Shown one piece after another: positions 906-47,269 of a stretch of DNA of 47,305 nucleotides. Every line of letters starts with the position of its first letter. Position 1 is the first letter of the stretch. Origin of the DNA: Clostridiaceae bacterium JG1575 (lineage in GTDB: Bacteria; Bacillota; Clostridia; Clostridiales; Clostridiaceae); NCBI GenBank assembly GCA_002838815.1, contig LQGW01000050.1:1-47305 (forward strand), read 5' to 3'. Below the pieces are notes generated by a model. It had not been told where the DNA came from. It ran no database searches and saw only the letters and a program-made list of their open reading frames with translations. The position numbers were made by a program, and so were the translations under genes.

Positions 906-1276
906 ATACCAAAACAAGCAACTAAGAAATGACCTCTCATGTTTGACATAAACATTGATCCTTGACAAGTGAATAGACCAAGACGAGACGTTATCCATTT
1001 AAGGAGCACAAGCTTATTTACGCCTAGACCTTCCTGCTGAGAAATGGTTCAAATGAATACTAGAAAATTCTATGGATAGAAGGAAGCGAGCGATAAATAG
1101 ATGAGTTTAATTAAGACCTGGAAATCTTAAGCGATGAATTAAATGGTGATAATGATACTTCTAAAGTTGACGCTGGCCCATCTTGAACAGGGGCAGAGGT
1201 GAGATGCCTATGTAGCAATTCCATTGCACTCGTTTATGTCATAAAACTAAATTTTATTTTAAGAGAGGACAAAACT
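906..1276. other. Gap with no intact gene, possibly decayed coding sequence
   Basis: No frame on either strand stays open long enough to support a gene. Several short in-frame stretches broken by stops (for example around 1021-1075 and 1165-1200) suggest decayed coding sequence of the element, but I cannot name a parent gene. Confidence 0.4.
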
Positions 1277-7847: not shown

Positions 7848-9211
7848 AAGGATACACGGAGTATCGAGTGCCATCACAAGTATGGCTTGATAGTATTCCA
7901 TCCCATTGGCACGAGGTTAGGTTTAAGCGAATTGCAACAAAACTCATCAGAATACCTTCAGAGGATGCCGAGGTTTTGATTTGTTCAAATAAAGGCGAAG
8001 TGTTTTTTAGAGGTGACAAAAGAATCGGTTTGGTCGCGGCTAACGATGACGGCTATCAGGGAGTGAATGTAGGTGATTTGCTTATTCACGGTATGGATAC
8101 TTGGCATGGTGCAATTGCCATTTCAAGATATTCCGGCAAATGCACTACAGTAGTCCATGTTTGTGACAGCATACAAAATAAGCGTTATTATGCGTATTTT
8201 CTTCGTATGTACGCTTTTAGGAAGCTCTATAAAGCAATAACTAATGGAGTACGGCAAAACACGAGCGACCTCCGGAGCTGGAGTAAAGCGGCCAATATAG
8301 CTGTCGCACTTCCACCGCGTGAAGAACAAGATCAGATAGTCCGCTTCCTTGATTGGAAGGTATCGGAGGTCAACCATTTTATACGGCAGAAGCGGCGCGA
8401 AATAGCCTTGCTGACAGAACTGATGAATACGAGGATAAAGGAAGCCGTGTTCGGCGGACTTAATCCGTCTGCCGCCAAACAAGACAGCGGCATCCACTGG
8501 GTTGGTGACATACCCGCCCACTGGAAGGAAAAGGTGCTGTTCGAGGTTGCGGCCGAGCAGTCCAACTCAAACAAGACCGTGCATAACCAGAACTTACTGT
8601 CGCTGAGTTACGGCAAAATCGTAAACAAGGACATCAATACCACCGAGGGATTGCTGCCAGCCTCTTATGACACTTATCAGGTGGTGGACGATGGGAACAT
8701 CATTCTTCGGCTGACGGATTTGCAGAACGATAAGCGGAGTCTGCGGGTTGGAATCGCGACCCAGACGGGAATCATCACTTCGGCGTATACCTGCCTCAAG
8801 GCTCGTGGCGACGATATGCTTCCCCACTACCTATATCTGCTTCTGCACTCGTATGACATCTGCAAGGTGTTTTACAGCATGGGCGGTGGCGTTCGCCAGA
8901 GCATTGGTTACGGTGAGATTAAGAGGATGTCCCTTCCGATACCGCCGACTGACGAACAACAGGCAATCATCAACTACTGCTACGCTTTGAGGGCAGATAC
9001 AGACAAGATGATTGCCGAACTGAAGCGTGAAATTGCATTAATCACCGAGTACCGCACACGGATGATTTCAGACGTGGTCACGGGCAAAGTCGATGTCCGA
9101 GACATTGCAGTACCGGACGTTGTGACTGAAGAGGTTATCGAAGAATCTTCGGACGATGAGGAATCAGACGACATTACCGATGAGGAGGTAGAGGAAAATG
9201 CTGACGACTGA
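7844..9211 (+). CDS. hsdS: Type I restriction specificity subunit HsdS
   Basis: A 455-residue protein that recognises the bipartite DNA target for the HsdM/HsdR complex. It has the usual two-fold layout. A first target recognition domain opens near SIPSHWHEVRF (about residue 18), with a conserved helix after LPPREEQDQIV (about 156). A second domain starts at VGDIPAHWKEKV (about 218), with a matching helix after IPPTDEQQAI (about 365). The last 25 or so residues form a very acidic Glu/Asp tail that is not typical of the family. It overlaps both hsdM and hsdR. Without functional HsdM it should be idle unless another methyltransferase subunit pairs with it. Confidence 0.93.
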   Translation: MKGYTEYRVPSQVWLDSIPSHWHEVRFKRIATKLIRIPSEDAEVLICSNKGEVFFRGDKRIGLVAANDDGYQGVNVGDLLIHGMDTWHGAIAISRYSGKCTTVVHVCDSIQNKRYYAYFLRMYAFRKLYKAITNGVRQNTSDLRSWSKAANIAVALPPREEQDQIVRFLDWKVSEVNHFIRQKRREIALLTELMNTRIKEAVFGGLNPSAAKQDSGIHWVGDIPAHWKEKVLFEVAAEQSNSNKTVHNQNLLSLSYGKIVNKDINTTEGLLPASYDTYQVVDDGNIILRLTDLQNDKRSLRVGIATQTGIITSAYTCLKARGDDMLPHYLYLLLHSYDICKVFYSMGGGVRQSIGYGEIKRMSLPIPPTDEQQAIINYCYALRADTDKMIAELKREIALITEYRTRMISDVVTGKVDVRDIAVPDVVTEEVIEESSDDEESDDITDEEVEENADD

Positions 9212-12164: not shown

Positions 12165-12184
12165 ATCTAAGGAGGCAACCGAGC

Positions 12185-14677
12185 ATGAACGCTGCTATTG
12201 GAGTTGAGCAATTAAATAATCTGAAGGATGAGTTCAAGACCTATCTGCGCGAAACGAACCCTCAATGGGCCGAACGCACGATTTCTACCATTGGCTCAGA
12301 TGCCTTCTTTGCGCTGAATAATAACGTGGGAGTGGACTTCTGGTCAAGCCTTGTAAGCGAAGAAGCTCTTCTTGTTGCCCGCGATAAAATTCGTGATTTT
12401 TTGGCAGGCACTAAAGGCGCAGGCAATGCTGACGAACGTGCTAACGGCTATCTGTCGGCGTTGAAACAACTGAAAACTTTCCTCGATACAAAACATCCGA
12501 CTCTCCCTGCCGAATGGAGTGGAAAATCTATCAGCGATGTAAATCTGCGGTCAGATTTTCAAGTGTGGATGAAGAAGCAAAAGAAATCCAACGGGGAAAG
12601 TTACAGCCCCAACACCATTAACGCTTATACGACAGCCTTAAAAAATGCCACAGCCAAGTTAGGCTTGGGCGATGCCGTCCTGACTGATCTGTTCTTCTAC
12701 ACAACCGCTGACGAATTTGAGGCAGCCCGCAAGACGATATTGGCTGCACCAAATTTTGAGGAAGTCGATTCTGCTGCAGGCAACAAAGCGTATTCAAACG
12801 GTATGGTAATATATGCCTGTTTTCTGAAGGAACTCGGAGAGCCGTCAGCTTGGATATTCCAAGGCAACCCGAAATATTACGACGTCATCGGAGCGGTAGA
12901 GGCTCTCGACAAACTAACTTGGGCGGTGAACCAGTATCCCAAGCAAATCAAGAAAGACGATAAAGCGTACATTTGGGTATCTGGTTCGGACGGCGGCATT
13001 ATCGCGTCTGGCACTATTATTTGCGATCCCGAAATAAGAAAACCAAATTTAAGCGACCCATATAATCGTGGCGATGCTTTGAAAAACAAGCCGTACTTGG
13101 CCGTCGATATCAGCGTAGAGCGTAAACTCACCCTTGAAAAAGTGCCACGCGCCGTATTGCTTGTGGATGAGCGCACGAAACAGCTTGAAATTCTGACCTA
13201 CCCCGGCGCGACGAACTTCCGCGTGACGAAAGCACAGGAAGAAGTCATCGAAAGCATTATTGACGGTAGTTACGAGCGCATTCCAGCGGTAGATGAGCCA
13301 AAAGTGGAGGTTGTAAGCAAACGTCGCTATTGGCTGTATTCGCCCGGTGAACAGGCCAAGTTCTGGGAGACGTTCTATAAAGACGGCATTATGGGTATTG
13401 GCTGGGACGACCTTGGTGACCTCTCGCAATATGATTCAAAAGCGGATATCAAGGCTGTTATGAAACAAAAGTATGACGATGATAAATCGTACAAAAATGA
13501 CGGCCACGCCCTATGGCAGTTTGCCAATGAAGTTGCGGTCGGTGATATCGTGTTCGCCAAGCGCGGAATGGGTGTCATCGTCGGCCGTGGTGTAGTCGAG
13601 TCTGATTATATCTATGATACAAACCGTAGCGAATTCAAACACATCCACAAGGTGAACTGGACTCAAAAAGGAGACTGGGAACATCCGGGTCAGGCGGTTA
13701 TGAAAACCTTGACCGATATTACGCAGTACACCGAGTACGTTGAAAAGCTGGAGGCATTGGTCTTGGGTGAATCGGATTTGCCCGAAACCGACGATGAACC
13801 CGAAATCCAATATCCCGATTACTCCGAAGCTGATTTTTTAAGCGAGGTATATATAGGCACAGAACGCTATGCAACCCTTAAAGGCTTGTTGCTCCGCAAG
13901 AAAAACGTGATTCTTCAAGGTGCGCCGGGCGTCGGCAAAACATTCGCTGCCCAGAGGCTTGCGTTCTCCATTATGGGTGAGAAGGATACGAGCCGCGTTA
14001 AAGTCGTCCAGTTTCACCAAAGCTACAGCTACGAGGACTTTGTGATGGGATATCGTCCAAACGAGAGTGGAGGTTTCACGCGCGCCGAAGGACCCTTTTA
14101 CAAGTTCTGCAAGACCGCCGAAAGTGACGACGAACGCCCATACTTCTTTATCATAGACGAAATTAATCGTGGCAACCTCAGTAAGATTTTCGGCGAGCTG
14201 CTTATGCTGATTGAAGGCGACAAACGCGGTGAAAAGAATGCCCTTCGTCTGCTATATAAAGATGAACAGTTTTCTGTGCCGGAGAACATTCACATTATCG
14301 GTATGATGAATACGGCCGACCGTAGCCTTGCGATGATTGATTACGCACTCCGTCGCCGATTTGCCTTTTTCGATATGGAACCGGCATTTCAGTCCGACGG
14401 TTTCAAGGCACGACAATCCGCCATCCAGAATCCAAGGTTTGATGCTTTGGTTTCGACAGTCGAGTCGCTGAACAAGACTATTGGCGAGGACGCTTCTCTG
14501 GGCGTTGGTTTTCGCATAGGCCACAGCTACTTCTGCACGAATGACATTGTAGACGATGCATGGATATCCTCCGTCATCGAATATGAATTGATGCCGCTTC
14601 TGAATGAATATTGGTTTGATGAGCCATCAAAGGTCGAGAGTTGGTCGGCTCGCTTAAGAGGTGTGGTGAATGGCTAA
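12185..14677 (+). CDS. mcrB: McrB-like GTPase of a modification-dependent restriction system
   Basis: An 830-residue AAA+ protein. McrB binds modified DNA and, with McrC, cuts it using GTP. The C-terminal motor has GAPGVGKT (about residue 578), FFIIDEINRGNLSKI (Walker B, about 652) and the McrB hallmark MNTADRSLAMIDYALRRRF (about 707). Upstream lies an EVE-like module (about 379-520, starting RRYWLYSPGEQAKFW), a fold that reads modified bases. The first 370 residues hold a helical segment and a domain I cannot name. The start follows AAGGAGG eight bases upstream and lies 20 bases after hsdR, so it may be co-transcribed with the type I genes. The end overlaps mcrC. Confidence 0.9.
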   Translation: MNAAIGVEQLNNLKDEFKTYLRETNPQWAERTISTIGSDAFFALNNNVGVDFWSSLVSEEALLVARDKIRDFLAGTKGAGNADERANGYLSALKQLKTFLDTKHPTLPAEWSGKSISDVNLRSDFQVWMKKQKKSNGESYSPNTINAYTTALKNATAKLGLGDAVLTDLFFYTTADEFEAARKTILAAPNFEEVDSAAGNKAYSNGMVIYACFLKELGEPSAWIFQGNPKYYDVIGAVEALDKLTWAVNQYPKQIKKDDKAYIWVSGSDGGIIASGTIICDPEIRKPNLSDPYNRGDALKNKPYLAVDISVERKLTLEKVPRAVLLVDERTKQLEILTYPGATNFRVTKAQEEVIESIIDGSYERIPAVDEPKVEVVSKRRYWLYSPGEQAKFWETFYKDGIMGIGWDDLGDLSQYDSKADIKAVMKQKYDDDKSYKNDGHALWQFANEVAVGDIVFAKRGMGVIVGRGVVESDYIYDTNRSEFKHIHKVNWTQKGDWEHPGQAVMKTLTDITQYTEYVEKLEALVLGESDLPETDDEPEIQYPDYSEADFLSEVYIGTERYATLKGLLLRKKNVILQGAPGVGKTFAAQRLAFSIMGEKDTSRVKVVQFHQSYSYEDFVMGYRPNESGGFTRAEGPFYKFCKTAESDDERPYFFIIDEINRGNLSKIFGELLMLIEGDKRGEKNALRLLYKDEQFSVPENIHIIGMMNTADRSLAMIDYALRRRFAFFDMEPAFQSDGFKARQSAIQNPRFDALVSTVESLNKTIGEDASLGVGFRIGHSYFCTNDIVDDAWISSVIEYELMPLLNEYWFDEPSKVESWSARLRGVVNG

Positions 14678-15725
14678 AAACGACAATCATCACATCCGCA
14701 ACATCTACTATATGCTTTCCTATGCTTTTCAAACGCTGAAAGAAACAGGCTATAGCAATGTTGCCACCGAGGATTTCGATAATATACACGACCTCTTCGC
14801 GGCTATCCTTATTAGGGGTATTGGAACGCAAGTAAAGAGAGGTCTGCACCGAGATTATCTTCAGCGAGAAGATGCGCTCGCGGGAGTACGTGGCCAGATT
14901 CTCGTGTCTGAAACCATTAAGCAGCAGGCGAGGCCACAAGGCAGACTTGTATGTTCTTATGATGAGTTTGTGCCGGACTCACCGCATAATCAGGCACTGA
15001 AAAGCACGATGATTATGCTTTTGCGCCACGGCAATGTGAAACCAGAAAACAAAAAGTCGCTCCGAAAACTGCTTCTCTATTTTGCGGAGGTTACCGAGGT
15101 GCCTCCTACATCAGTAAGATGGGATGCTTTGAAGTACCACCGCAACAATGCCTCGTACCGAATGTTGCTGGGGATTTGCCGTCTTGCCGTCAAGGGATTG
15201 CTCTTAACCACAGAAAACGGAGCCAACCGGCTTGCCAGTTGGCTTCAAGACGAGGAAATGCACCGCCTATATGAGCGGTTTTTGCTTAACTATTTCAAAA
15301 TGGAGCACACGGAGTTAGCTGTTAGCGCACCCTATATCGATTGGGACATCGACGGTAGCGAGCGCAGTATGTATTTGCCGATAATGAAAACTGATATTAC
15401 TTTGCAAAGCAGCAACAAGCGGCTGATTATTGACGCAAAATACTACAGTCACACGATGCAGTATAATTCGTTATATGACAGCCGGACGTTTATATCCGGC
15501 AACCTTTATCAGATTTATACCTACGTCAAGAATAGTGATGTTGGAGCGACAGGCAACGTAGCGGGTGTTCTGCTCTATGCCATGACAGACGAAGCCATCA
15601 CCCCGAATGAGGATATGACGATAGGCGGCAACCGTATCAGCCTAAAAACGCTCGATTTGGGGATGGACTGGAATTCAATTACAGCACAGTTGGATAGCCT
15701 TTGCAGTTGGTTGAAGTGCGCTTAG
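14670..15725 (+). CDS. mcrC: McrC-like nuclease subunit
   Basis: A 351-residue protein of the McrC family, the nuclease partner that McrB activates. A PD-(D/E)xK core is visible: MKTDITLQ around residue 238 and IIDAKYY around residue 253, with QIYTYVKN further on. The N-terminus (RNIYYMLSYAF) matches the short-form McrC proteins that pair with EVE-containing McrB. The ATG overlaps the mcrB stop by 8 bases, so the two are coupled. It probably restricts phage or foreign DNA carrying modified cytosines; the exact modification cannot be read from the sequence. Confidence 0.88.
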   Translation: MAKNDNHHIRNIYYMLSYAFQTLKETGYSNVATEDFDNIHDLFAAILIRGIGTQVKRGLHRDYLQREDALAGVRGQILVSETIKQQARPQGRLVCSYDEFVPDSPHNQALKSTMIMLLRHGNVKPENKKSLRKLLLYFAEVTEVPPTSVRWDALKYHRNNASYRMLLGICRLAVKGLLLTTENGANRLASWLQDEEMHRLYERFLLNYFKMEHTELAVSAPYIDWDIDGSERSMYLPIMKTDITLQSSNKRLIIDAKYYSHTMQYNSLYDSRTFISGNLYQIYTYVKNSDVGATGNVAGVLLYAMTDEAITPNEDMTIGGNRISLKTLDLGMDWNSITAQLDSLCSWLKCA

Positions 15726-36150: not shown

Positions 36151-36199
36151 GCACCCGAAGCCTTCGCCCGTTTGGGGGAATGCTTCGGGTGCTGTTTTT
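36151..36199. terminator. Bidirectional terminator
   Basis: A perfect 11-bp stem (36151-36161 with 36182-36192) is followed by TGTTTTT on the plus strand. On the minus strand it overlaps the end of the acylphosphatase gene. Confidence 0.8.
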
Positions 36200-36476
36200 A
36201 AAAGCTAGCGCGCACTTCAAAGGTTTTTTCTTCGGGATGGGGCGACAAGGTCTTTTGTTCCAGAGAGCGAACCTTGGCAAAGGGAGCATCGTTTCGAACC
36301 GCCTGGGTGAAAAGGTCCAAGAAGCCTTCATCTCCCTGGGCTTCGATGAGCACCGAGCCGTCGGGTGCATTTTGTACAAAGCCCGTGATTTGGTAGCGCT
36401 GAGCCATTTTTCGCACCTGATAGCGGAATCCAACGCCTTGGACCCGGCCTCTCGCACGTAGGGAACGGCGGATCAT
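36198..36476 (-). CDS. acyP: Acylphosphatase
   Basis: A 92-residue enzyme that hydrolyses acyl phosphates. The signature RGRVQGVGFRYQV (about residues 9-21) contains the phosphate-binding loop and catalytic Arg. ITGFVQNAPDGSVLIEAQG (about 30-48) contains the catalytic Asn. The C-terminus ends in FEVRASF, close to the family norm. Its ATG overlaps the stop of the upstream exonuclease-like gene by 4 bases, so both are read from one transcript. Confidence 0.93.
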   Translation of the reverse strand: MIRRSLRARGRVQGVGFRYQVRKMAQRYQITGFVQNAPDGSVLIEAQGDEGFLDLFTQAVRNDAPFAKVRSLEQKTLSPHPEEKTFEVRASF

Positions 36477-37480
36477 AGGAACGGCACCTCTTCGCTCGTT
36501 GACTCGAAAGAGGCAGGGCCCGAATCGTGAATGGCGTAGCCTTCTTCATCCAAAGGAGTGAAGGGTCCAATGTAATGGGTTTGGGGCTCGAGATCTGCAG
36601 GGGCGGTCACTTTGTAAGCATAGGCCGCTTCCCCCTCCCGCCAAAGTTCTTGGGAGGACTCGCTGGGGGAGGCCTCCATGACCTTTTGGCCGGGCTGAAT
36701 TGGTAATAGATCTGAGGTTTTTGCCCAAGGCTCCCGAGTGAGGGTGGTTTTGTAGTCTTGGGTGCGCAGATAGTCCAAGTAGATGGCGGCTGTGATCTTT
36801 GCCCCATAGACGGGATCTTCTTCATCCACCTCGAAGCGATAAAAGTCATTCATGGCCTCAATGTCGAATTCTTTTTGCTTTGGGTAGAGCATGCGGGCCA
36901 AGTCCTCGGTATCGATGGCATCCATTAAAAAGGGCCAATGATGGAGGTCGCTAAACCAGGTGTGCGCGTACATTTTTTCATGCACGATCAAGGGAAAGTC
37001 CTTGGTGTAGGTTTTTAAAAAGCGGAAAGCATCCTCTAAGGGCAACCGGATGCCTCTTTTTTTATCCCCTTCTTGCAAGAGGGGAAGGAAGAGTCCATCG
37101 GTGAGCACTCCCTGCTCATAACGCACGGCTTGAAGCGAGAGGACTTTGGATTCATAGGGATCCGCTCCGTCATGATCCACATAAAGGGCGATAAAGCGCG
37201 GATACAGAGCATACTTCATAGGCACCTCTTTTCCCTTGGCTTTGGGGTTGAAGAGGGGGCGCTCCATGATCATGGTCCGATAGCTGTTGCGGTGTTGCAT
37301 GGTCAATAGTTTAAACACATCAAAGAAGACCACGATGAGTAGGGCGGCAAAAAGCAACCGAACCGCAAGCGCGGTGATGGCGGATGATTGGTTGGCATTG
37401 ACGGCAAGCAGCCAGATGATGCCGCCAAAGAGCACCAAGAAGCTAAAAATGTATTTCTTTTTTAATAGTTTCATACCCAT
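36473..37480 (-). CDS. Membrane-anchored exonuclease-like protein without catalytic residues
   Basis: A 335-residue protein with two N-terminal transmembrane helices (about 8-27 and 36-58). A soluble domain at about 92-240 follows the DnaQ-type 3'-5' exonuclease pattern: RFIALYVDHDGADPYESKVL, then PLIVHEKMY, then DTEDLARMLYPKQ. The acidic ligands are not kept: the D-x-E of motif I has become Y-x-D, the Asp of motif II is absent, and the His/Asp of motif III are replaced. The C-terminal 90 residues have no recognisable domain. It would be a binding rather than cutting protein. The assignment is by eye and needs a profile search. AAGGAGG and a TATAAT (37501-37506) precede it. Confidence 0.6.
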   Translation of the reverse strand: MGMKLLKKKYIFSFLVLFGGIIWLLAVNANQSSAITALAVRLLFAALLIVVFFDVFKLLTMQHRNSYRTMIMERPLFNPKAKGKEVPMKYALYPRFIALYVDHDGADPYESKVLSLQAVRYEQGVLTDGLFLPLLQEGDKKRGIRLPLEDAFRFLKTYTKDFPLIVHEKMYAHTWFSDLHHWPFLMDAIDTEDLARMLYPKQKEFDIEAMNDFYRFEVDEEDPVYGAKITAAIYLDYLRTQDYKTTLTREPWAKTSDLLPIQPGQKVMEASPSESSQELWREGEAAYAYKVTAPADLEPQTHYIGPFTPLDEEGYAIHDSGPASFESTSEEVPFL

Positions 37481-37541: not shown

Positions 37542-37900
37542 GTGGGATCGGGTCAACGTACGGTCGGTTCAGATATCGAGGGGGCCCGAAACCTGGGCAG
37601 CAGCAGTAGCCTGTTGGATCGTTGGCGTCATAAGGATGCGGCCGAAGGCGACAAGCCCCGGTTTGCCATCCTAGAGGCGGAGAACAAAGCGCTGAGACTG
37701 AAAAATGCAGAGCAGGTCCTTGAGATTGACCTGCTAAAAAAAGCCAGCGCCTACTTTGTAAGTCTCCACAAGGGATCTACGCGTTCATTCAAGCGCATAC
37801 AGAACATGGCGTGGCAAGGGGGACGTCCTTTTTTGTGGGGTCCAGCAGCGGCTAAGTCAAATCCATATTTGTGTGTAAAATCGACACTGGTCTACTAAAC
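37542..37900 (+). pseudogene. IS3-family transposase remnant (OrfA/OrfB)
   Basis: The open frame encodes an OrfA-like leucine-zipper part (LLDRWRHKDAAEG, ILEAENKALRLKNAEQ, LLKKASAYF). Just after it, a different frame reads YAFIQAHTEHG, the start of an IS3 OrfB. The helix-turn-helix start and the whole DDE domain are missing. It is a degraded fragment lying between the exonuclease-like gene and the pbp operon. From 37900 to 38194 no gene is seen, and no clear promoter could be fixed. Confidence 0.7.
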
Positions 37901-38194: not shown

Positions 38195-41100
38195 ATGAAT
38201 TCAGAAAATCAAAAGCCCAAGCGGCGCATTTTCAATCGATATACGGCGTTGGGTCTTTGTTTGGTGCTGGTGATGGGACTCATCACGAAAACCCTCTTTG
38301 ACATGCAGATTGTCAAAGGAGAGGAATATCAAAACAAAGCGGATGCCTATTCTGTGCGGGATATGTCGGATCCTGCGCCCAGGGGCGAGATCCTAGACCG
38401 CAATGGGGCGGTTTTGGCCACCAATTTGATGTCTTATGACGTGATCTACAATGAAACCAGAGAGTCTTCGCTTGAATTTTACAGCACCATGAAGGAGTTT
38501 TTACGCCTCTTGGATCAAACCAAGGAGCCGCTTCATGATGTCTTTGAAATCAAAGCGGAGCCGGACTTTGCCTTTGATTTTCATACGACCAACCGGGACG
38601 CCATGCGTTTTCGGGAACTACGCTTCAAAAAAGATCGCAACATGGACGAATGGATTTTGGCCCAGGGCTATGGCAAAACCATTGGAAAATCACAGATCAA
38701 GGATTTGAGCGATGCGCAGTCTAAGGAATTGGACGCCATGCTCATGGCGGTCAGCGCCAAAGAAACCTTTGAATACCTTGTGCGCTACCATGGGCTCTAC
38801 CGCATGCTGAGGCTTCCCAAGGAGCAGCAGGAGGAGCTTTTGAAAAAAAACGATGCGCAGCTCACCCAGGCCATCTTGAACACCGTTCCCTTGAAGGAAC
38901 TTAGGCGCTATCTTTTGGTCCGCGACCAGGTGCGCATGAAGGTTTACCAATCCAACAAAGCGGTGACCCTCGCCAAAAACCTCAATAAAAAAAGCGCCTT
39001 TGTCTTCATGCAGCGTTCCAATTTGCTCTCGGGGATTGATGTGCAGTTAAATCCCACGCGGATCTACCCCTATGGTCCCTTGGGATCCCATGCACTGGGC
39101 TATTTGTCCACCATCAGCGAAGGCAGTCGAGAACGCTATGAATCTCGGGGCTACGATGTCAATCAGGACATGGTGGGGGTTTACGGTATTGAAGAAGCCT
39201 TTGAGCAGGAACTGCGAGGCACCAAGGGGGTGTCTACGGTGAAAGTGGACCTCCAGGGCCGCACGGTCAATGAGCTTTTTAAGCTGGAGGGCTATCCGGG
39301 CTCCAGCGTACAGCTGACGTTGGATAAGGATTTGCAGTACACTGCCGAGCAAGCGCTTTCTGCGACGCTGGAAAACCTTCGAACGAACTTTGTGAATCAT
39401 CGCCAAGGAAAATCCCACAATGCGACCCGGGGCGCGGTGGTGGTGCTGGACGTCAAGACGGGCAAAGTGCTCGCCATGGCCTCCAATCCCTCCTTCGACC
39501 CCAACGTCTTCATAACCCCTGGCGCGCTGACGCAGGATCTGTACCGTCGATATTTTGATCCGGATTTGGAGGCCTTTGGCAAGGATCTGATTGCCCGCTT
39601 GGGAATTGCGAATAAGACGGTGGACGACCTCTTCCCCAAAAACAAAAAAGGAATTCGTCAGGATTTTTACGACAACTATCCCAAGCCCTTTTTTAACTAT
39701 GCCACCCAGGGGCTTTCGGCGGTGGGCTCGAGCTATAAGCCGTTTACAGCCCTTGCGGCTTTGGAAGCAGGGGTTTTGGATCCGAACACCATCATCGACG
39801 ACAAGGGCATTTTCCAAAAGCCGGAGCTGCCCAACTATTCCGCCACCAACAACAATAAAGTAGTGATGGGGCCGTTGAATTTTAACCGAGCTTTGACGCG
39901 CTCCTCCAACGTTTTTTTCCTGGAAACCGCCTGGCGCCTCTACAACAAAGAAGGTCTGGATTCCTTGGCGCATACGGCCTGGAAATTCGGTCTGGGCCAT
40001 GATCCCAAGGAAGGGATTCATTCCACTACGGGCATCGAGATCAACGAAAATATCTTTGGCAATGTCTTTAACTATGAATCTCGTAAACGCCTCATCGGGA
40101 TCGGCGCCTACGCCGACATGGCGGCGCTTTTGCGCAGTGGGGTGGGCCGGGACGGGAAGAAGTTCCAACCGCTGGAAATATCTTTGCAGGATTCCGATTC
40201 TGAAAAGGTCAAGGCCTTGAAACTGGAAATGGATGAGCGCTTGCGTAAGTTCTGGACCGAAATGCCCGCCAAGGATTCTAGAACTCTCGATGAGAAATTT
40301 AACGCCATTCGGGACATTGTGGATTATAGCCTCGATGCCATTATGGATACCTATCCCAAGGAGGCGCGCAAAAACCTGCCGGATTCCTCCTACCTAGCCG
40401 ATCAGGTAGCGGCCATGCTCCTCTACGATCGGGGCGGAGAACTCAATTCCCCCGTCAACATTCTAAACGCCGCCTTAGGACAAGGGGATACGGAGCTGTC
40501 CCTTCTTCAGATGGCCAATGCCGCAGCGACGCTGGCCAACGGAGGCATCCGTTACCGCACGAGTTTGGTGGATCGCATCATCAACCCAGAAGGGCAGGTG
40601 GCCAAGGTCATCGAGCCTGAAATTTTGGGCAAGGTGGATTTGAAGCCCGAGCATTTGGCCCAGGTCAAGGAAGCCATGATCAACGTCAACAACAACGACG
40701 AAGGCACCGGATTTAGCTACATGGAGGGCTTTCCCATACAAACCGCCGGCAAAACGGGAACGGCTCAGTATCAGATGACCTCCACCGACAGCGACAACGT
40801 CGGCCGGCATCAATACGGAACCTATATTACCTACGCGCCGGCCAACGACCCTCAAATTGCCATTGCCGTCATCGGTTATGACGTGGTCTATGGATCCTAT
40901 ATGATTCCCGTCGCTCGTGCCATTTATGAAAAATACTTTGAGAAGGAAATTGCCCGAGATTTTCCCGATTATCGTCCATCCTTTGATTTTCAGCTCAAGC
41001 CGGTGCTGAACGTCGAGCCTTCGCTATTGAAGCTGAAGAACCCCACGAAGGAACTGACGGCCCCCGTGATGCCCAATTACGTTCCCGGACGACCCATTCC

Positions 41101-41209
41101 ACCCTCCATGCGACAGCCCATCAACACGGTGCCCTCAGGCGCTCCAGGGCCGACCAGCAAAAAGGATCCGGACGCCCCCAAGGAGCCCCCGGTGGAAGCC
41201 CATGACTGA
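38195..41209 (+). CDS. Class B penicillin-binding protein (PBP2/FtsI type)
   Basis: A 1004-residue transpeptidase that cross-links peptidoglycan. A short cytoplasmic basic N-terminus and one membrane helix (about 15-35) precede the dimerisation domain (RGEILDRNG near residue 65) and the transpeptidase domain. Active-site motifs are complete: SSYK with nucleophile Ser512, SSN at 570-572, and KTG at 853-855. It is longer than the usual 650-750 residues because of helical insertions at about 95-240 and 600-720, and it ends in a Pro-rich tail. The ATG follows GGGAGGAA; an upstream in-frame start at 38156 lacks a site. The stop overlaps the Ndh2-like gene by 8 bases, making it the first gene of the operon. 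Confidence 0.92.
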   Translation: MNSENQKPKRRIFNRYTALGLCLVLVMGLITKTLFDMQIVKGEEYQNKADAYSVRDMSDPAPRGEILDRNGAVLATNLMSYDVIYNETRESSLEFYSTMKEFLRLLDQTKEPLHDVFEIKAEPDFAFDFHTTNRDAMRFRELRFKKDRNMDEWILAQGYGKTIGKSQIKDLSDAQSKELDAMLMAVSAKETFEYLVRYHGLYRMLRLPKEQQEELLKKNDAQLTQAILNTVPLKELRRYLLVRDQVRMKVYQSNKAVTLAKNLNKKSAFVFMQRSNLLSGIDVQLNPTRIYPYGPLGSHALGYLSTISEGSRERYESRGYDVNQDMVGVYGIEEAFEQELRGTKGVSTVKVDLQGRTVNELFKLEGYPGSSVQLTLDKDLQYTAEQALSATLENLRTNFVNHRQGKSHNATRGAVVVLDVKTGKVLAMASNPSFDPNVFITPGALTQDLYRRYFDPDLEAFGKDLIARLGIANKTVDDLFPKNKKGIRQDFYDNYPKPFFNYATQGLSAVGSSYKPFTALAALEAGVLDPNTIIDDKGIFQKPELPNYSATNNNKVVMGPLNFNRALTRSSNVFFLETAWRLYNKEGLDSLAHTAWKFGLGHDPKEGIHSTTGIEINENIFGNVFNYESRKRLIGIGAYADMAALLRSGVGRDGKKFQPLEISLQDSDSEKVKALKLEMDERLRKFWTEMPAKDSRTLDEKFNAIRDIVDYSLDAIMDTYPKEARKNLPDSSYLADQVAAMLLYDRGGELNSPVNILNAALGQGDTELSLLQMANAAATLANGGIRYRTSLVDRIINPEGQVAKVIEPEILGKVDLKPEHLAQVKEAMINVNNNDEGTGFSYMEGFPIQTAGKTGTAQYQMTSTDSDNVGRHQYGTYITYAPANDPQIAIAVIGYDVVYGSYMIPVARAIYEKYFEKEIARDFPDYRPSFDFQLKPVLNVEPSLLKLKNPTKELTAPVMPNYVPGRPIPPSMRQPINTVPSGAPGPTSKKDPDAPKEPPVEAHD

Positions 41210-43082
41210 TCCCCACAACACGATAGGGAAAAAAGAGCAGCCACAAAAGGACTGCTCCTTTTTCCCCGAAGGAACTGAGAACCTTTCTCAAAGGGAAGAC
41301 GCTGGGCCGCGCATTATTGTAGTGGGTGGCGGGTATGCAGGATGGCGCGCCGCCAAGCGCCTCGCTCAAAAAGTCCAAGGGCCGGTCCGCATCACGCTGA
41401 TGGATGAATCCGAGCAACTTTTTATGAAAACCCAGCTGGTGGAGGTGGCCTCGGGCTCGTTGCCTTTGGGGGCAATCGCTCTGACGCGTCGGGAACTAAG
41501 CGAGCCTCAGGAGATCTTTTTTTTGCAAGACCGCTTAGAACGAGTGGATTTAGAAAAACAGCTCCTCCACGGGCGGCAACAAAGCTATGCCTACGATTAT
41601 TTGATCTTGGCTTTGGGCAGCGGGCCGGTGGTGCCCCCTGGGCTAAACCTTCGTTCCGTTGCCTTTTTCCCCATGGAGCCCAAATCGGCTCAGGAGGCTG
41701 GACTGCGTCTTAGAGCCATGAAGGAAGGGCAAATTACCATCTGTGGTGGCGGCGCAGTGGGAGTGGAACTTGCCTTGGAGGTCGCCGCGCGGTACCCCAA
41801 GCTGCGGGTTCGCCTAGTTACCCGCGGCGATGGGATTTTGCTGGAATACTCCGAGCGGGTTCGAAGATCCGCCATGAAGGAATTCAAAAAACGAAACGTG
41901 GCGCTCTATGTTGGTCATACCGTCACACAACTCGTGGCGGGCGGCCTGAGCGCAACGGGCCCCGACGGAGCCTGCTGCTTTTCCTCGGACCTGACTTTTT
42001 GGGCGGTAGGGGGAGCACCAGAGCACTCCGTAGAAGGGCTCTGGCGTGCCGCGGACGGTCGCTTTTTAGTAGATGATACCCTTCGGATGGGGCCCAATGG
42101 GACGGTGTTTTGCATCGGAGATTGCGCCTTTGGCAGTGAGGGATCCGTTCCGTCCGCCCACCATATGGCGGATGTTTGCGCTGACAATGTGCTATTGATG
42201 ATGGAAGGCAAGCCATTAAAGACCCATCACCCCCAAAAATCAATCAAGCTGTTGTCCCTGGGGCCGCATCAAGGAGCCGTTCAGGGCCCCATCCTTCTCT
42301 TTGGCTGGCCGGCCCGAGCCTTGAAGAGCTTGGTGGAGTGGCTTCATCTGTTGCTGGTGGGGGGATGGGTTGCGGCCCTGCGTTCCTTTTTGGCGCAGTG
42401 GGGCACCCCGGGGCGTCGCAATCTTTTCGGACCTCTTTTTTCCACGAGGGGGCCGCTTTTGTGGCTGTTGCCGCTGCGCTTTGCCGTGGGGTTTTTATGG
42501 GCCAAGGAAGGACTCTCGAAAATTGTGGGCCCCTCGGTGTGGGCCGCTGCGCAATCTCCCTTGGATCTTTTGACCCTGGGCCCAGACTCTTGGCTTCGTC
42601 CGGGAACCCTTCATATGCCTTTTTCTTGGCTCCAGGGAGCAGACCTTCAAACCTCTGCCACCCTGGGCTCCGCCAATGGACCGGTGTTGACGTCGTTGCC
42701 TGGATGGTATGAAGCCCTCATGCGTACCCTCATGCCTACTCCGGGCGTTGCCCAGTTCTTCCAAAGTCTTTTGGGGCTTACCGAGGGGACGGTGGGTGTT
42801 TTGCTCCTTTTGGGCCTTTTCACCTGGATGGCTTCCCTCGTCAGCGCCGCGATGACGGTGAACTTTATATTGGCGGGCGTTGCCGGCACGGGCGTACTGT
42901 GGCTGATTCCGGCATCCTTGGCCCTTATGGCGGGATCGGGGAACCTTTTGGGCTTGGACGGGCTGCGCCATCGACGCTTTCTTAAGAAGGTTCTCGAGCC
43001 GCTTCAAGAGCCCCCAATCCTTCCTCAATCTGCGCCCCGCCCCAGAGCCTCACAACAAGATCCCCCTGCAGCGACCCCTTAA
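41202..43082 (+). CDS. ndh2: Type II NADH dehydrogenase fused to a DoxX-like membrane domain
   Basis: A 626-residue flavoprotein. Two Rossmann motifs are visible: IIVVGGGYAGWRAAKRL (FAD, about residue 38) and ICGGGAVGVELALE (NADH, about 180). CIGDCAFG (about 305) completes the FAD site. From about 380 to 600 there are several hydrophobic helices resembling a DoxX-type four-helix domain (FAVGFLWAKEGLSKI, LLLLGLFTWMASLVSAAMTV). Ordinary NDH-2 enzymes lack this. The Ndh2 of the Listeria extracellular electron transfer locus has a similar membrane tail and feeds NADH electrons to a dedicated quinone. An unusual extension of about 35 residues precedes the FAD fold. Confidence 0.85.
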   Translation: MTDPHNTIGKKEQPQKDCSFFPEGTENLSQREDAGPRIIVVGGGYAGWRAAKRLAQKVQGPVRITLMDESEQLFMKTQLVEVASGSLPLGAIALTRRELSEPQEIFFLQDRLERVDLEKQLLHGRQQSYAYDYLILALGSGPVVPPGLNLRSVAFFPMEPKSAQEAGLRLRAMKEGQITICGGGAVGVELALEVAARYPKLRVRLVTRGDGILLEYSERVRRSAMKEFKKRNVALYVGHTVTQLVAGGLSATGPDGACCFSSDLTFWAVGGAPEHSVEGLWRAADGRFLVDDTLRMGPNGTVFCIGDCAFGSEGSVPSAHHMADVCADNVLLMMEGKPLKTHHPQKSIKLLSLGPHQGAVQGPILLFGWPARALKSLVEWLHLLLVGGWVAALRSFLAQWGTPGRRNLFGPLFSTRGPLLWLLPLRFAVGFLWAKEGLSKIVGPSVWAAAQSPLDLLTLGPDSWLRPGTLHMPFSWLQGADLQTSATLGSANGPVLTSLPGWYEALMRTLMPTPGVAQFFQSLLGLTEGTVGVLLLLGLFTWMASLVSAAMTVNFILAGVAGTGVLWLIPASLALMAGSGNLLGLDGLRHRRFLKKVLEPLQEPPILPQSAPRPRASQQDPPAATP

Positions 43083-43102
43083 GAATACGAAAGGATCGAA
43101 TC

Positions 43103-43513
43103 GTGAAATACCTTAAAATGAAATGGCTGGACGTGGTGCTCATCGCGCTCTTGGTCTTGGCCTCCTTTATTCCCAATGCCGTATTTGCCTATCAGACCAT
43201 GCGCGCTCCGGCGGCCCCTAAAGAGAAAAAAGTAGCCGTGATCCGCGTGGACGCCAAAGAGGTCCGGCGCATTGAACTCACCGGCAACACCAAAACCTAT
43301 GATGTTCCCATTGCCACATCGGCGGGAGAAAACGTCCTCCGGGTGGAGCGGGAGACGGTGAAGATGATTCGGGCGGACTGTCCCGATCAAGTCTGCGTGA
43401 CCTCCTTTCCCACCATCTCCCAAAAGGGGGAGCAAATCATCTGCCTGCCCCATAAGCTCATTGTGGAAATTGAGGGCGGCTCATCCGGGGAAGGAGATCT
43501 GAACGCACATTGA
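43103..43513 (+). CDS. eetA: NusG domain II membrane protein, EetA-like
   Basis: A 136-residue protein with an N-terminal membrane helix (about 9-30, VVLIALLVLASFIPNAVFAY) and an external NusG-II beta domain. It carries DCPDQVC and ICLPHKLIVEIEG, both typical of this family. Such proteins are EetA in the Listeria/Lactobacillus electron transfer locus, required for electron passage but with unknown chemistry. The start is GTG 43103, seven bases after AAAGGAT, 20 bases downstream of ndh2. The stop overlaps the next start as TTGA. Confidence 0.85.
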   Translation: MKYLKMKWLDVVLIALLVLASFIPNAVFAYQTMRAPAAPKEKKVAVIRVDAKEVRRIELTGNTKTYDVPIATSAGENVLRVERETVKMIRADCPDQVCVTSFPTISQKGEQIICLPHKLIVEIEGGSSGEGDLNAH

Positions 43514-44049
43514 AGAAGAAAAATCGAAACATCTATCGCATGATCTACATCGCTTTATTGGTCGCTCAAGCCATGGTGGTGTTTAAATTGGAGGAATTGA
43601 TTCCGGTGCCCTTTCCGGCGGTTCCGGGAGCAAAGCTTGGCTTGGCCAATATCTTTACCTTGGTGTCCTTATACACCCTCGATCCCTTCTCGACCTTTGT
43701 GGTGGTGGCGCTGCGCAGCATTCTCTCCATGGTTATCGGCAGCAACCCCGCGGCATTTCTTTATTCCATCTCTGGCGTCGTCTTGGCCTTTTTATTCATG
43801 TGGGGCTTAAAGAGCACCCTTGGCGATCGGCTCTCACGCATCGGCATTTCAGTGGCGGGGGCCTTTGCCCATAATTTGGGCCAGCTTTTGGCAGCGGCAA
43901 TTTTGGTGTCGGCTCCAAGAATTCTTGTTTGGTTGCCCGCCTTGACCCTTTTGGCGATCCCCACAGGCTTTTTTGTCGGGGTTACAGCCAACTTTATGCT
44001 GGAGCATCTTTCTCGAATGAACATCATGAAGGAGTTGAAAAGGGGATGA
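43510..44049 (+). CDS. eetB: Gx-family membrane protein, EetB-like
   Basis: A 179-residue membrane protein with about five helices, often annotated as Gx transporter or heptaprenyl diphosphate synthase component I. Family features include FKLEELIPVPFPAVPGAKLG near residue 21, TLVSLYTLDPF, and the later AHNLGQLLAA. In Listeria this is EetB, needed for flavin-based extracellular electron transfer. TTG 43510 overlaps the eetA stop, and an AAGGAG lies about 13 bases upstream. The stop overlaps the next start as ATGA. Confidence 0.85.
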   Translation: MKKKNRNIYRMIYIALLVAQAMVVFKLEELIPVPFPAVPGAKLGLANIFTLVSLYTLDPFSTFVVVALRSILSMVIGSNPAAFLYSISGVVLAFLFMWGLKSTLGDRLSRIGISVAGAFAHNLGQLLAAAILVSAPRILVWLPALTLLAIPTGFFVGVTANFMLEHLSRMNIMKELKRG

Positions 44050-44963
44050 CCCAGTGGCGCATGCCAGAGTGCATGGAGAAGAAAATTGAGGAGGTTCACC
44101 AGCGGATGCTTCGTTGCATCCCCTCCGAGGGCCGCCTGGCCCAAATTGCCAAGGAAGTCACGGTGCGCCGGGGCAAGATGCTGCGTCCGGCACTTTTGTT
44201 GGCGGTGGCGGGGGCTGATGCCGAGGAAGAAGACACCTTGGCGGTGGGGGCGGCCATTGAATACCTGCATATGGCGAGTCTCATCCATGACGACATCATC
44301 GATGGGGCGACGCAACGACGATCGGCCCCCTCCGTCGTCGCACGCCACGGCTTGGCGATGGCCCTGTACTGCGGGGATTACCTCATCTGCCTTGCGCTGC
44401 GTTGCCTGAGCGAAGTGGACCGGAGCCTGGTGCCTGAGAAGCCCTGGGACTTTATGACCCCGCTTTTGGAAGCGGAGGCTGAGCAACTGTCCTCGCGTTT
44501 TTTTCAAAATATTACAAAAGAACACTACTTAGAGCGAATTGAAGCCAAAACAGGGGCGCTTTTTGCTTTGGCTTGCGCTGCGGGCGGGACCCTTCGTCGG
44601 GCAACCCCTAAGGTGTTAAGGGACCTTCGCAAAGGGGGGCTGGCCTTTGGCATCGCTTTTCAGCTGCGCGATGACGTCTTGGACTTATTGCAAAATCCCG
44701 GGGAAGACCTTCAAAGCGGCACCTATACGCTGCCCGTTTTTTTGGCCTTGGAGGAAGACCCTCGATTGAAGGATCGGCTGTCGAGCGCCTCCCCTGAGGA
44801 GGTTTCATCGGCGATCCAAAAGACCCGGGCCATTGAACGGACGAAAGGCATCATGCAGGAGCAGTGGGCGCTGGCTCTTAAGTATTTGAGGCCTCACCTG
44901 GCCCCAGAGAATGCTGTTTTTTTGGCGGACTTAATCGCCTTTTTGGAGGACACATGCACGTAA
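44046..44963 (+). CDS. dmkB: Polyprenyl diphosphate synthase, DmkB-like
   Basis: A 305-residue long-chain prenyl synthase that builds the side chain of a (demethyl)menaquinone. Both aspartate-rich motifs are present: HDDIIDGATQRR near residue 81 and QLRDDVLDL near residue 207; RGKMLRPALLL near residue 40 binds the allylic substrate. I place the start at ATG 44046, overlapping eetB as ATGA; an open frame reaching back to 43929 lies inside eetB. Its position next to Ndh2, EetA and EetB matches DmkB. The MenA-type partner DmkA is not in the window. Confidence 0.88.
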   Translation: MTQWRMPECMEKKIEEVHQRMLRCIPSEGRLAQIAKEVTVRRGKMLRPALLLAVAGADAEEEDTLAVGAAIEYLHMASLIHDDIIDGATQRRSAPSVVARHGLAMALYCGDYLICLALRCLSEVDRSLVPEKPWDFMTPLLEAEAEQLSSRFFQNITKEHYLERIEAKTGALFALACAAGGTLRRATPKVLRDLRKGGLAFGIAFQLRDDVLDLLQNPGEDLQSGTYTLPVFLALEEDPRLKDRLSSASPEEVSSAIQKTRAIERTKGIMQEQWALALKYLRPHLAPENAVFLADLIAFLEDTCT

Positions 44964-45826
44964 AAGCCTTCGCTAAAATTAATTTGTTTCTCCACGTAGT
45001 GGGCCGTCGCCCCGACGGCTATCATCTGTTGGATATGGTGATGCAGGAGGTGGATTTATGCGATGAACTGACGCTGAACTTGCAACCACCTAAAAAACGC
45101 CGAAAGGACCAAGAAGCGTCTCGCATAACGGTGTATTCTTCCGAGAAATTTCTGAAAAAGGGAGAGGAAAATTTGGTGCTGCGAGCCGCCCAGGCTTATT
45201 ACAGCGTGCAGGAAGAGACGGGGGAAGGGCGCATCGATCTTTATAAGGCGATTCCCGTGGCGGCGGGCTTGGGCGGCGGATCCGCAGATGCTGCGGCAGT
45301 CCTTCGGGCGTTGAATGAACAATCAGAGCATCCCTTATCGGACGAGGATCTTTCGAACCTTGCCTGTCATTTGGGCGCAGATGTCCCATTTTTTTTGCAA
45401 GGGGGAACGGTTCGCTGTCAGGGCATCGGGGAAATCCTAACGCCCCTTACGCCGTTTTCCGGCCATCGCTGCCTTTTGGTAAACCCCGGCTTTGCCGTGG
45501 AGACCCCCAAGGTCTTTGGTCGGCTCCAACGAAGCGATTGGCAGAAAAAGGGGTGCATTGAGCCTCTTTTGGCGGCGTTGGCGCGTCAATCTTTGGAGGA
45601 AGTTTCGGCCCTAATGGCCAACGATTTAGCGCGCCCCACCTTCGAAGAGCATCCGGAGCTTCAAAAAATCGAAGAAGCCTTGTTGCGCGAAGGCGCACTT
45701 GGCGCTGCCATGAGCGGCTCAGGTCCGACGATGTTCGGGTTTTTTGACAAAGAAGAGCCTTTTCAGGCCGCATACGAAGCCTTGAAAAAAGACTATCCCT
45801 TGACTTTTCGTACGAGGACCCGCTAA
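44954..45826 (+). CDS. ispE: 4-diphosphocytidyl-2-C-methylerythritol kinase IspE
   Basis: A 290-residue GHMP kinase of the MEP isoprenoid pathway. It phosphorylates CDP-methylerythritol. Motifs include AKINLFLHVVGRRPDGYHLL at the N-terminus, the ATP-binding PVAAGLGGGSADAAA (about residues 98-112) and MSGSGPTMFGFF near the C-terminus. It overlaps the polyprenyl synthase gene by 10 bases and is the last gene of the operon. Its presence ties isoprenoid precursor supply to polyprenyl and quinone synthesis, and also to the lipid carrier needed by the PBP at the start of the operon. Confidence 0.95.
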   Translation: MHVKAFAKINLFLHVVGRRPDGYHLLDMVMQEVDLCDELTLNLQPPKKRRKDQEASRITVYSSEKFLKKGEENLVLRAAQAYYSVQEETGEGRIDLYKAIPVAAGLGGGSADAAAVLRALNEQSEHPLSDEDLSNLACHLGADVPFFLQGGTVRCQGIGEILTPLTPFSGHRCLLVNPGFAVETPKVFGRLQRSDWQKKGCIEPLLAALARQSLEEVSALMANDLARPTFEEHPELQKIEEALLREGALGAAMSGSGPTMFGFFDKEEPFQAAYEALKKDYPLTFRTRTR

Positions 45827-45877
45827 GGGGTGGATGGCTCAGGAGTCTTCTTGAAAGACACCTCGATGTTACGAACG

Positions 45878-45926
45878 AAAGACCGCTGCAGCTTTGCCCA
45901 TAAAGGGCTAGTGCAGCGGTCTTTTT
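45878..45926 (+). terminator. Terminator of the pbp-ndh2-eet-ispE operon
   Basis: A perfect 13-bp stem (45878-45890 with 45912-45924), preceded and followed by A and T runs (CTTTTTGG). It is the only terminator seen between 38.2 and 45.9 kb. Confidence 0.88.
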
Positions 45927-45999: not shown

Positions 46000-46165
46000 C
46001 GGCATTAAGACTTGGAGGTGCTGCCTTATCAGTAATTATCACGGATATAAACCAGAGTCCCCCATATTTCTGATTTGTGCCCCGGTAGATTTCAGAAAAT
46101 CCATCGACGGACTTACTGCATTGATTCAAGAAGAATTCAATCATAGTCCCATGGAGAATGGATAG
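46000..46165 (+). pseudogene. IS66-family TnpB fragment
   Basis: From about 46025 the sequence reads PIFLICAPVDFRKSIDGLTA and then LIQEEFNHSP before TAG 46163-46165. This is the conserved N-terminal motif of the IS66 Orf2/TnpB protein (D-x-RKSIDGL). GGAGGTG upstream resembles its ribosome site, but no start codon remains, and the C-terminal NRxRD part is lost where the next IS begins. Confidence 0.75.
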
Positions 46166-46255
46166 AGTCCATATAATGGTGTAAATTGAATAAGCCAAAA
46201 AACAAGCCCCTGGTATAATTAAGTTGTACACATAACTACCTGGAGGATTTGTTTG

Positions 46256-47269
46256 ATGGCTCAACTTAATATTACACTGGACACCAATCTTTTGAAAGCC
46301 CTTTTCTCTCTTGAGGGCAGGGATCAAGCCTACGCAAAGCTTATGGAATCCATCTTGAACCAGGTCCTGGAACATCAAGCCATGGAGCAAACCGGTGCCA
46401 GCCTCTACGAGCGCAGCGAAAAGCGGCAGGCCTACCGCAACGGCTACCGAGGTCGCACCTTAAAAACACGGGTCGGCACCCTGACTTTGACTGTCCCGCG
46501 CCTGCGGGACGGACACTTCAGCACCGAGCTCTTCTCGCGCTATCAGCGCAATGAGCAGGCTCTGGTGCTCGCCGTGATGGAGATGGTGGTCAACGGCGTA
46601 TCCACCCGCAAGGTCTCGGCCATCACTGAAGAATTGTGTGGCACCGCCTTCTCCAAGTCCACTGTATCCTCGCTCTGCGAGCAGCTCGATCCCGTGGTCA
46701 CGGCGTTCCGTGAGCGTCCGCTGGAGAAAATCTACCCCTACTTGATCGTCGATGCCATCTACACTATAGTACGGCAGGCAGGCGCCGTGCGCTCCAAAGG
46801 GCTGCTTGTGGCCCTCGGGGTGAACGGGGACGGCTATCGCGAGATTCTTGGCTTCATGGCGGCGGACACGGAGTCCGAAGGATCCTGGGGCGATTTCTTC
46901 TCGTCCCTCAAAGACCGGGGGCTTATGGGCGTGGACCTGGTCGTGTCCGACGCCCATAAGGGCCTCGTTCGCGCCATCGGGAAACACTTCCAGGGAGCAG
47001 CCTGGCAAAGGTGCCAGACCCACTTCTCCCGCAACCTGCTCGATGTGTGCCCGAAAAAGCATCAGCCCACGGTCAAGGCGCACTTGAAGTCCCTGTATGA
47101 GTCCGTAGACCACGAGGCGGCCCGCGCTGTTAAGGAACGCATCCTCACTGAATACGGTCAGAACGCCCCAAAAGTCTGCGCTCTGCTAGAGGAGGCTTTT
47201 GACGATGTGACACAGGTTCTGCGCCTGCCCATGGCCATCCGTAGGAGGCCTACACAAATAGGGAATTGA
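46256..47269 (+). pseudogene. IS256-family transposase, 3' end lost
   Basis: A mutator-type transposase reading of 337 residues. It has the family pattern: YRNGYRGRTLKTRVGTLTL, then LIVDAIY (first Asp) and VVSDAHKG (second Asp), then RCQTHFSRNLL. It stops six residues after LRLPMAIRRR, where intact relatives continue for about 60 residues containing the catalytic Glu (ERLNREIRRR). The foreign tail PTQIGN begins at the AT-rich sequence near 47250, so the gene is cut by another insertion or a deletion. CTGGAGG precedes ATG 46256, and an extended -10 (TGGTATAAT) lies at 46211. It is distinct from the IS256 remnant at 24.7 kb. Confidence 0.85.

What the first reader, a model, noticed from the sequence alone, without database searches (positions are those of the whole stretch)
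38195..45826. Penicillin-binding protein, extracellular electron transfer genes and ispE in one overlapping operon
Seen: six genes with overlaps or short gaps, no internal terminator, one strong terminator at the end. Known: Ndh2 with a membrane tail, NusG-II protein (EetA), Gx protein (EetB) and polyprenyl synthase (DmkB) make up the membrane and quinone part of the flavin-based extracellular electron transfer locus (Listeria, lactobacilli). Inference: this organism has a reduced or split version, with FmnB/ApbE, PplA and DmkA elsewhere or replaced. It is co-expressed with a cell-wall transpeptidase and with the MEP kinase that feeds both quinone and lipid carrier. Coupling a PBP to electron transfer is not something I know to be described.
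Basis: partly seen in the sequence, partly recalled or inferred. Interest (0 to 1): 0.68.

Follow-up and report, generated by a model that had tools for sequence, protein, structure and literature searches.

The report
Electron-transfer genes beside a cell-wall gene
A standard set of genes for moving electrons and flavins across the membrane sits next to an ordinary cell-wall enzyme gene in a few related Clostridia, but a transcription-stop signal probably separates the two, so the supposed link between wall building and electron transfer is most likely just gene order.

Summary
The six genes are real and well named: PBP2-type class B PBP, NDH-2 with a DoxX-like tail, NusG-II (EetA), PF07456 (EetB), polyprenyl synthase (DmkB), IspE. 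"No internal terminator" is wrong: a terminator-like hairpin starts 25 nt after the pbp stop (41235-41263), and hairpins with the same core lie between pbp and ndh2 in both other genus genomes held. The rest of the electron-transfer set is elsewhere in the genome: one ApbE beside a PplA-like lipoprotein, and a MenA-like protein. This is a split Listeria-type locus. The PBP is the family's housekeeping PBP2, which in this clade has left the mreBCD cluster. Four loci from three sister genera have pbp-eetA-eetB-veg-ispE without ndh2 or dmkB; in three of them a convergent lipoprotein gene separates pbp from eetA. So the pbp~eetAB~ispE neighbourhood probably predates ndh2 there. One distant Clostridia locus has eetAB just before mreBCD-pbp2, an unexplained lead. 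Functional PBP-electron-transfer coupling is unlikely but not excluded. Ordinary system, clade-specific arrangement.

The parts
38195..41209 (+). pbp: class B penicillin-binding protein, PBP2 type, 1004 aa; the housekeeping PBP2, moved out of the mre cluster
   Evidence: PBP_dimer and Transpeptidase; SxxK, SxN, KTG residues kept in 3 genus members (motif names recalled); a match in 146 of 146 family genomes; tree
41235..41263 (+). terminator-like hairpin with T run (also terminator-like on the - strand), inside the annotated start of ndh2
   Evidence: same core in G001 and G002
41202..43082 (+). ndh2: type II NADH dehydrogenase with membrane DoxX-like C-terminal part (about residues 511-593); first 36 residues not conserved
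   Evidence: Pyr_redox_2, solved NDH-2 matches; DoxX/DoxD matches just under their cut-offs
43103..43513 (+). eetA: NusG domain II protein, GTG start
   Evidence: PF07009, 100.4 bits
43510..44049 (+). eetB: Gx/ECF-S-like FAD export subunit, TTG start
   Evidence: PF07456, 136.3 bits; function from Listeria homologue (PMC9973259)
44046..44963 (+). dmkB: trans-polyprenyl diphosphate synthase
   Evidence: PF00348, 161.9 bits
44954..45826 (+). ispE: CDP-ME kinase of the MEP pathway
   Evidence: TIGR00154 and NF011202 over their cut-offs
45877..45926 (+). strong terminator after ispE
36473..37480 (-). conserved upstream neighbour of unknown function; present beside pbp in G001 and G002 and near it in G104 and G082
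   Evidence: no Pfam family
36198..36476 (-). acylphosphatase gene overlapping the neighbour above
   Evidence: PF00708

Best explanation
This is the membrane and quinone half of an ordinary, split flavin-based EET system. Ndh2 oxidises NADH and reduces (demethyl)menaquinone; DmkB, a MenA-like protein encoded elsewhere and IspE serve quinone synthesis; EetB, with EetA and an ECF module encoded elsewhere, exports FAD, which the single ApbE uses to flavinylate the PplA-like lipoprotein and other FMN-binding proteins outside the membrane. The PBP is the housekeeping elongation PBP2. It lies upstream because in an ancestor of a small clade of Clostridiaceae the PBP2 gene came to lie next to eetAB-ispE; it ends at its own terminator and takes no part in electron transfer. 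Shown: gene identities, neighbourhoods, hairpins, presence of the other components. Inferred from homologues: enzyme activities, EET itself, separate transcription.
For: Gene families. PplA-like/ApbE pair, one ApbE, MenA-like protein, three EcfT in the genome. dmkB matches in 19 of 21, eetA and eetB in 13 of 21, the exact collinear order in 10 of 21 ndh2 loci outside the genus, pbp and ispE in 0 of 21. Hairpins between pbp and ndh2 in 3 of 3 genus genomes. 16 of 20 fetched family PBP loci lie directly after maf-radC-mreBCD. Sister-genus loci have pbp, eetA, eetB, ispE but no ndh2, with a convergent gene and hairpins in 3 of 4. PBPs of these loci and of the genus form one group, 100/100.
Against: pbp and eetAB stay neighbours over four genera, which chance alone need not preserve. 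A distant Clostridia locus has eetA-eetB just before mreBCD-pbp2 (L109). In the window itself ndh2 starts inside pbp and no promoter was listed between them, so at least some read-through is likely. No transcript data. In G061 no terminator-like hairpin was seen after pbp.
Confidence: 0.75

Rival explanations
1. One reading: PBP and EET genes form one operon because wall synthesis and electron transfer are coupled, for example through the shared isoprenoid pool.
For: Close spacing in the window; pbp next to eetAB and ispE in 7 genomes on one contig and in G001 over two contigs, of 146 (compared by eye); eetAB before mreBCD-pbp2 in L109.
Against: Hairpins between pbp and ndh2 in 3 of 3 genus genomes; convergent gene in 3 of 4 sister loci; sister genera with the neighbourhood lack a full Ndh2 (6 genomes); 0 of 21 other ndh2 loci have the PBP; PBP is the family's PBP2.
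Confidence: 0.08
2. EetAB here mainly supply FAD for ApbE substrates other than a PplA-type EET protein: RnfG, an NqrC-like protein and secreted FMN_bind flavocytochrome-c-type reductases; Ndh2 then feeds these reductases rather than metals or electrodes.
For: Seven FMN_bind places and one ApbE in the genome; Rnf, Nqr-like and FAD_binding_2 plus FMN_bind proteins; sister genera have eetAB without a full Ndh2 and a small FMN_bind-type lipoprotein beside them; eetB often sits with Rnf in Clostridia, and FmnB also serves a secreted fumarate reductase (PMC9973259).
Against: A PplA-like lipoprotein is paired with the ApbE gene and is found in genomes with the full Ndh2 in 6 of 7 cases. The two roles do not exclude each other.
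Confidence: 0.25
3. In this genome the hairpin is a translation-sensitive attenuator: ndh2 starts inside the end of pbp, so ribosomes leaving pbp re-initiate and cover the hairpin, and ndh2 is expressed only while pbp is translated.
For: ATGACTGA overlap; the hairpin lies within the first 21 codons of ndh2; no other ATG, GTG or TTG in frame before the conserved start.
Against: The overlap is absent in both other genus genomes, where the hairpin is in an untranslated gap; it may be a relic of a deletion.
Confidence: 0.07

Closest known systems
Flavin-based EET (FLEET) locus of Listeria monocytogenes and Lactiplantibacillus plantarum
   Same: Ndh2, EetA, EetB and DmkB together; FmnB/ApbE, PplA-like and MenA/DmkA-like proteins in the genome
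   Different: Split over several contigs; PBP2 and ispE beside the core instead of pplA, fmnA, fmnB and dmkA
ECF-type FAD exporter EetB (PMC9973259)
   Same: PF07456 protein next to a NusG-II protein, three EcfT proteins in the genome
   Different: No ECF-T or ECF-A gene among the six genes; the partner is unknown
maf-radC-mreBCD-pbp2-minCD-rodA cluster (Clostridium ganghwense, L102)
   Same: Same long PBP2; the PBP tree joins both
   Different: In the window's genus PBP2 is elsewhere; in G000 and G002 no PBP and no minCD match was found in the 16 kb around mreBCD-rodA

Membership tests
Listeria-type EET locus | Ndh2, EetA (PF07009), EetB (PF07456) and DmkB encoded together | tested here: met
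Listeria-type EET locus | PplA and FmnB/ApbE present | tested here: met
   ApbE; PplA-like lipoprotein by alignment and neighbourhood only, no Pfam family
Listeria-type EET locus | DmkA/MenA present | tested here: inconclusive
   UbiA over its cut-off; best NCBIfam MenA model 208 bits, under its cut-off of 289
Listeria-type EET locus | All EET genes in one cluster | tested here: not met
   pplA-like/apbE on C37, MenA-like on C35, core on C50
Listeria-type EET locus | Electron transfer to ferric iron or electrode | not testable with these tools
   needs an assay
Housekeeping PBP2 (MrdA) | PBP_dimer plus transpeptidase domains; groups with the mre-cluster PBPs of the family | tested here: met
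Housekeeping PBP2 (MrdA) | NCBIfam pbp2_mrdA score over its cut-off | tested here: not met
   398 bits against 455; the family's long PBP may be outside the model
PBP-EET operon | No terminator or promoter between pbp and ndh2/eetA | tested here: not met
   sequence evidence only

The most novel reading that the evidence does not exclude
EetAB (FAD export, perhaps another lipid- or isoprenoid-linked substrate) has a selected tie to the cell-elongation machinery: PBP2 lies beside eetAB-ispE over four Clostridiaceae genera, and eetAB lies directly before mreBCD-pbp2 in a distant Clostridia (L109). In the window's species the compacted pbp/ndh2 junction, with the hairpin inside the ndh2 leader, would then act as a translation-coupled attenuator tying NADH-to-quinone flux to PBP2 synthesis.
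Probability: 0.08. Interest if true: 0.55.

Novelty: new member of a known kind. Interest (0 to 1): 0.27.

Why it matters
It adds a split flavin-based EET system in a Clostridiaceae genus known here from three genomes and suggests how such a locus is put together: eetAB-ispE beside PBP2 appears older than ndh2 and dmkB at the site. It also cautions against reading close gene spacing as an operon: the hairpin was not listed by the standard terminator scan and stood out only when the junctions of relatives were compared. If the EetAB-elongasome neighbourhood were functional, it would point to an unknown link between flavin export and wall growth.

Tried and rejected
Broken or recoded ndh2 in G002 (a TGA flagged): rejected, the alignment runs upstream of the ATG at L039 9073.

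A later start for the window's ndh2: no ATG, GTG or TTG in frame before the conserved start, so 41202 stays the only standard candidate.

Named genomes: the scan with Ndh2 alone confirmed no relative. The scan with the PBP alignment kept the best 80 of 166 loci. L109 first looked negligible; on rechecking it has eetA-eetB-mreB-mreC-mreD-pbp2 on one strand. A more sensitive profile search of the 80 plus the 20 family PBP loci found eetAB only in L109 and the four sister loci, all of which were in the profiles; 24 of the 80 are shorter than 15 kb. As a rough inference, one hit within 10 kb in 80 loci is near what chance gives.

Trees: 23 EetB rows; 22 PBP rows of 24 asked for (G066 and G108 dropped out, probably for frame breaks). 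EetB did not resolve: the pbp-linked rows need 3 changes on the best tree, and 14% of bootstrap trees give one origin.

PBP universality: a match in 146 of 146 family genomes, but weak in G102 (7.7e-9) and G017 (3.5e-32), which may be other PBPs. PBP-EetB adjacency was read by eye; the PBP list is truncated. Seven genomes have both adjacent on one contig (G000, G002, G061, G007, G082, G104, G119), G001 by inference. 113 of 146 have an EetB match; G133, a fourth species of g60 (82% complete), is not among them.

Literature: five searches. No paper held all of penicillin-binding protein, extracellular electron transfer, operon and Ndh2; the listings of the others showed no PBP-EET operon; only listings were seen. 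Papers seen: PMC9973259 (abstract, sections 3, 7, 11), PMC9888254 (passages). No structure prediction was run.
Full report
OBSERVATION. The window (G000, contig C50) holds six same-strand genes at 38195-45826. Solved type II NADH dehydrogenases are among the best matches to the ndh2 N-terminal part. Junctions are -8, +20, -4, -4 and -10 nt. The terminator after ispE is strong.

INTERNAL TERMINATOR. At 41235-41257, 25 nt after the pbp stop, lies GAGCAGCC-ACAAAA-GG-A-CTGCTC followed by CTTTTT, with an A run on the other side, so it looks like a terminator on both strands (rank 4 on +, rank 5 on -). In that call the window has 9 and 7 sites at -10 kcal/mol or lower on its strands, against a mean of 1.4 in 20 order-1 Markov sequences. 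The simple scan did not list it, probably because of the bulge. G002 and G001 have hairpins between pbp and ndh2 with the shared core AGCAG...CTGCT; their T runs are weaker than the window's. There ndh2 begins after the hairpin behind its own ribosome-binding site, 98 and 202 nt after the pbp stop. In the window the hairpin lies inside the first, non-conserved codons of ndh2. Stability alone is not exceptional; the argument rests on the T run, the position and the conservation. Upstream of eetA, G001 and G002 share a GGAACTGnTATAAT element that the window lacks; the promoter scan did not list it in G002, so it is a lead.

CONSERVATION. All 3 of 3 genus genomes have pbp followed by ndh2. G002 keeps the whole order from DUF3867 to ispE; in G001 it is spread over two contigs that both end inside ndh2. 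Outside the genus I fetched 21 loci from the top hits: 19 of 21 have a dmkB match, 13 of 21 eetA and eetB, 10 of 21 the exact collinear order, 0 of 21 pbp or ispE; several are cut by contig ends. The PBP query has a match in 146 of 146 family genomes, weak in two. Of 20 PBP loci fetched from the family (20 of 146 genomes, chosen by me), 16 lie directly after maf-radC-mreBCD, as in Clostridium ganghwense L102. The other four (G061, G007, G104, G082; three genera) have pbp followed by eetA, eetB and ispE without ndh2 or dmkB. In G007, G104 and G082 an opposite-strand FMN_bind-type lipoprotein gene lies between pbp and eetA (Pfam over the cut-off in G007 and G082, under it in G104), with hairpins in the convergent gap; in G061 a gene that looks like an EamA-type transporter (by eye) takes its place and no terminator-like hairpin was seen. 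A Veg-like small protein lies between eetB and ispE in all four (Pfam tested for G007 only). Six sister-genus genomes (G061, G007, G082, G104, G119, G133) have no match over both parts of Ndh2-DoxX, and all six have ApbE. The PBPs of these loci and of the genus form one side of a branch, 100/100. The simplest history is that PBP2 came to lie beside eetAB-ispE in a common ancestor and ndh2 and dmkB joined in the window's genus; loss in the sisters is the alternative. No PBP match lies in the 16 kb around mreBCD-rodA of G000 and G002.

A RESULT THAT CUTS THE OTHER WAY. Of 80 named loci brought in by the PBP, one (L109, a rumen-type Clostridia MAG, PBP 26% identical) has eetA-eetB-mreB-mreC-mreD-pbp2 on one strand, confirmed by Pfam. 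A profile search found eetAB in no other of the 80. One case in 80 is near chance for a 20-kb neighbourhood (inference), but it is the same pairing in a different arrangement and keeps the novel reading open.

THE REST OF THE SYSTEM. The genome has one ApbE, beside a two-repeat lipoprotein. The pair stands together in 6 of the 7 genomes with a match to the lipoprotein; in the seventh, G038, the contig ends just past it. The lipoprotein has no Pfam family but aligns with a lipoprotein adjacent to ndh2 in G043, both repeats ending in a related S[SGT]V[ST] motif. In G038 its homologue lies in the ndh2 cluster. 7 of 58 genomes searched (own included) have it, and 6 of these 7 also have the full Ndh2-DoxX. 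A UbiA/MenA-like protein and three EcfT proteins are present. The same ApbE probably also serves RnfG, an NqrC-like protein and FMN_bind flavocytochrome-c-type reductases.

MECHANISM. In Listeria EetB is an FAD-binding ECF-S-like subunit needed for FAD export, FmnB flavinylates PplA at two sites, and the eetA deletion lacked an EET phenotype (PMC9973259). In L. plantarum EET is proposed to start at Ndh2 (PMC9888254 passages). By homology, Ndh2 passes electrons from NADH to quinone; the PplA-like protein or secreted reductases accept them; EetAB with an ECF module supplies FAD to ApbE; DmkB, the MenA-like protein and IspE serve quinone synthesis. All these steps are inferred. The PBP keeps its catalytic motifs (motif names recalled).

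VERDICT. The genes and the split-EET reading stand. The PBP coupling is not supported: separate units are likely, the PBP is the family's PBP2, and the neighbourhood seems older than ndh2 there. What remains of interest is the persistence of PBP2 next to eetAB-ispE over four genera, the L109 arrangement, and the hairpin-in-leader geometry of this genome.

Noticed in passing
L109 6321-11992: eetA-eetB directly upstream of mreB-mreC-mreD-pbp2 on one strand in a distant Clostridia MAG (RGIG9057); unexplained second pairing of eetAB with PBP2.
   Followed up: partly
L195 6319-6783, L196 6429-6890, L197 6429-6890: Small FMN_bind-type lipoproteins with an SGATT motif, convergent to PBP2 and divergent from eetA in sister genera: likely further ApbE substrates.
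   Followed up: partly
L059 6496-8840; homologues L216, L217, L218, L219, L221, L062: Two-repeat lipoprotein without a Pfam family, paired with apbE; looks like a PplA-type flavinylated protein, perhaps an unlisted family.
   Followed up: partly
L032 and L035 (own genome, contigs C53 and C55): The genome has both an Rnf cluster and a second NqrB/NqrC-like cluster.
   Followed up: no
L037 and L038 (own genome, contigs C28 and C33): Identical 3207-base stretches with an FMN_bind flavocytochrome-type lipoprotein on two contigs: recent duplication or assembly redundancy.
   Followed up: no
window 37542-37898, 46037-46165, 46253-47269: Transposon remnants on both sides of the gene set: weak HTH_Tnp_1 match (E 0.013), IS66 Orf2 fragment, Mutator-family transposase.
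   Followed up: partly
window 6390-15725: Type I restriction-modification genes (methylase, specificity, restriction subunits) followed by an AAA_5/McrBC pair.
   Followed up: no
window 1149-1213: pemK RNA (RF02913) match, 50.4 bits, the only Rfam hit of the window.
   Followed up: no
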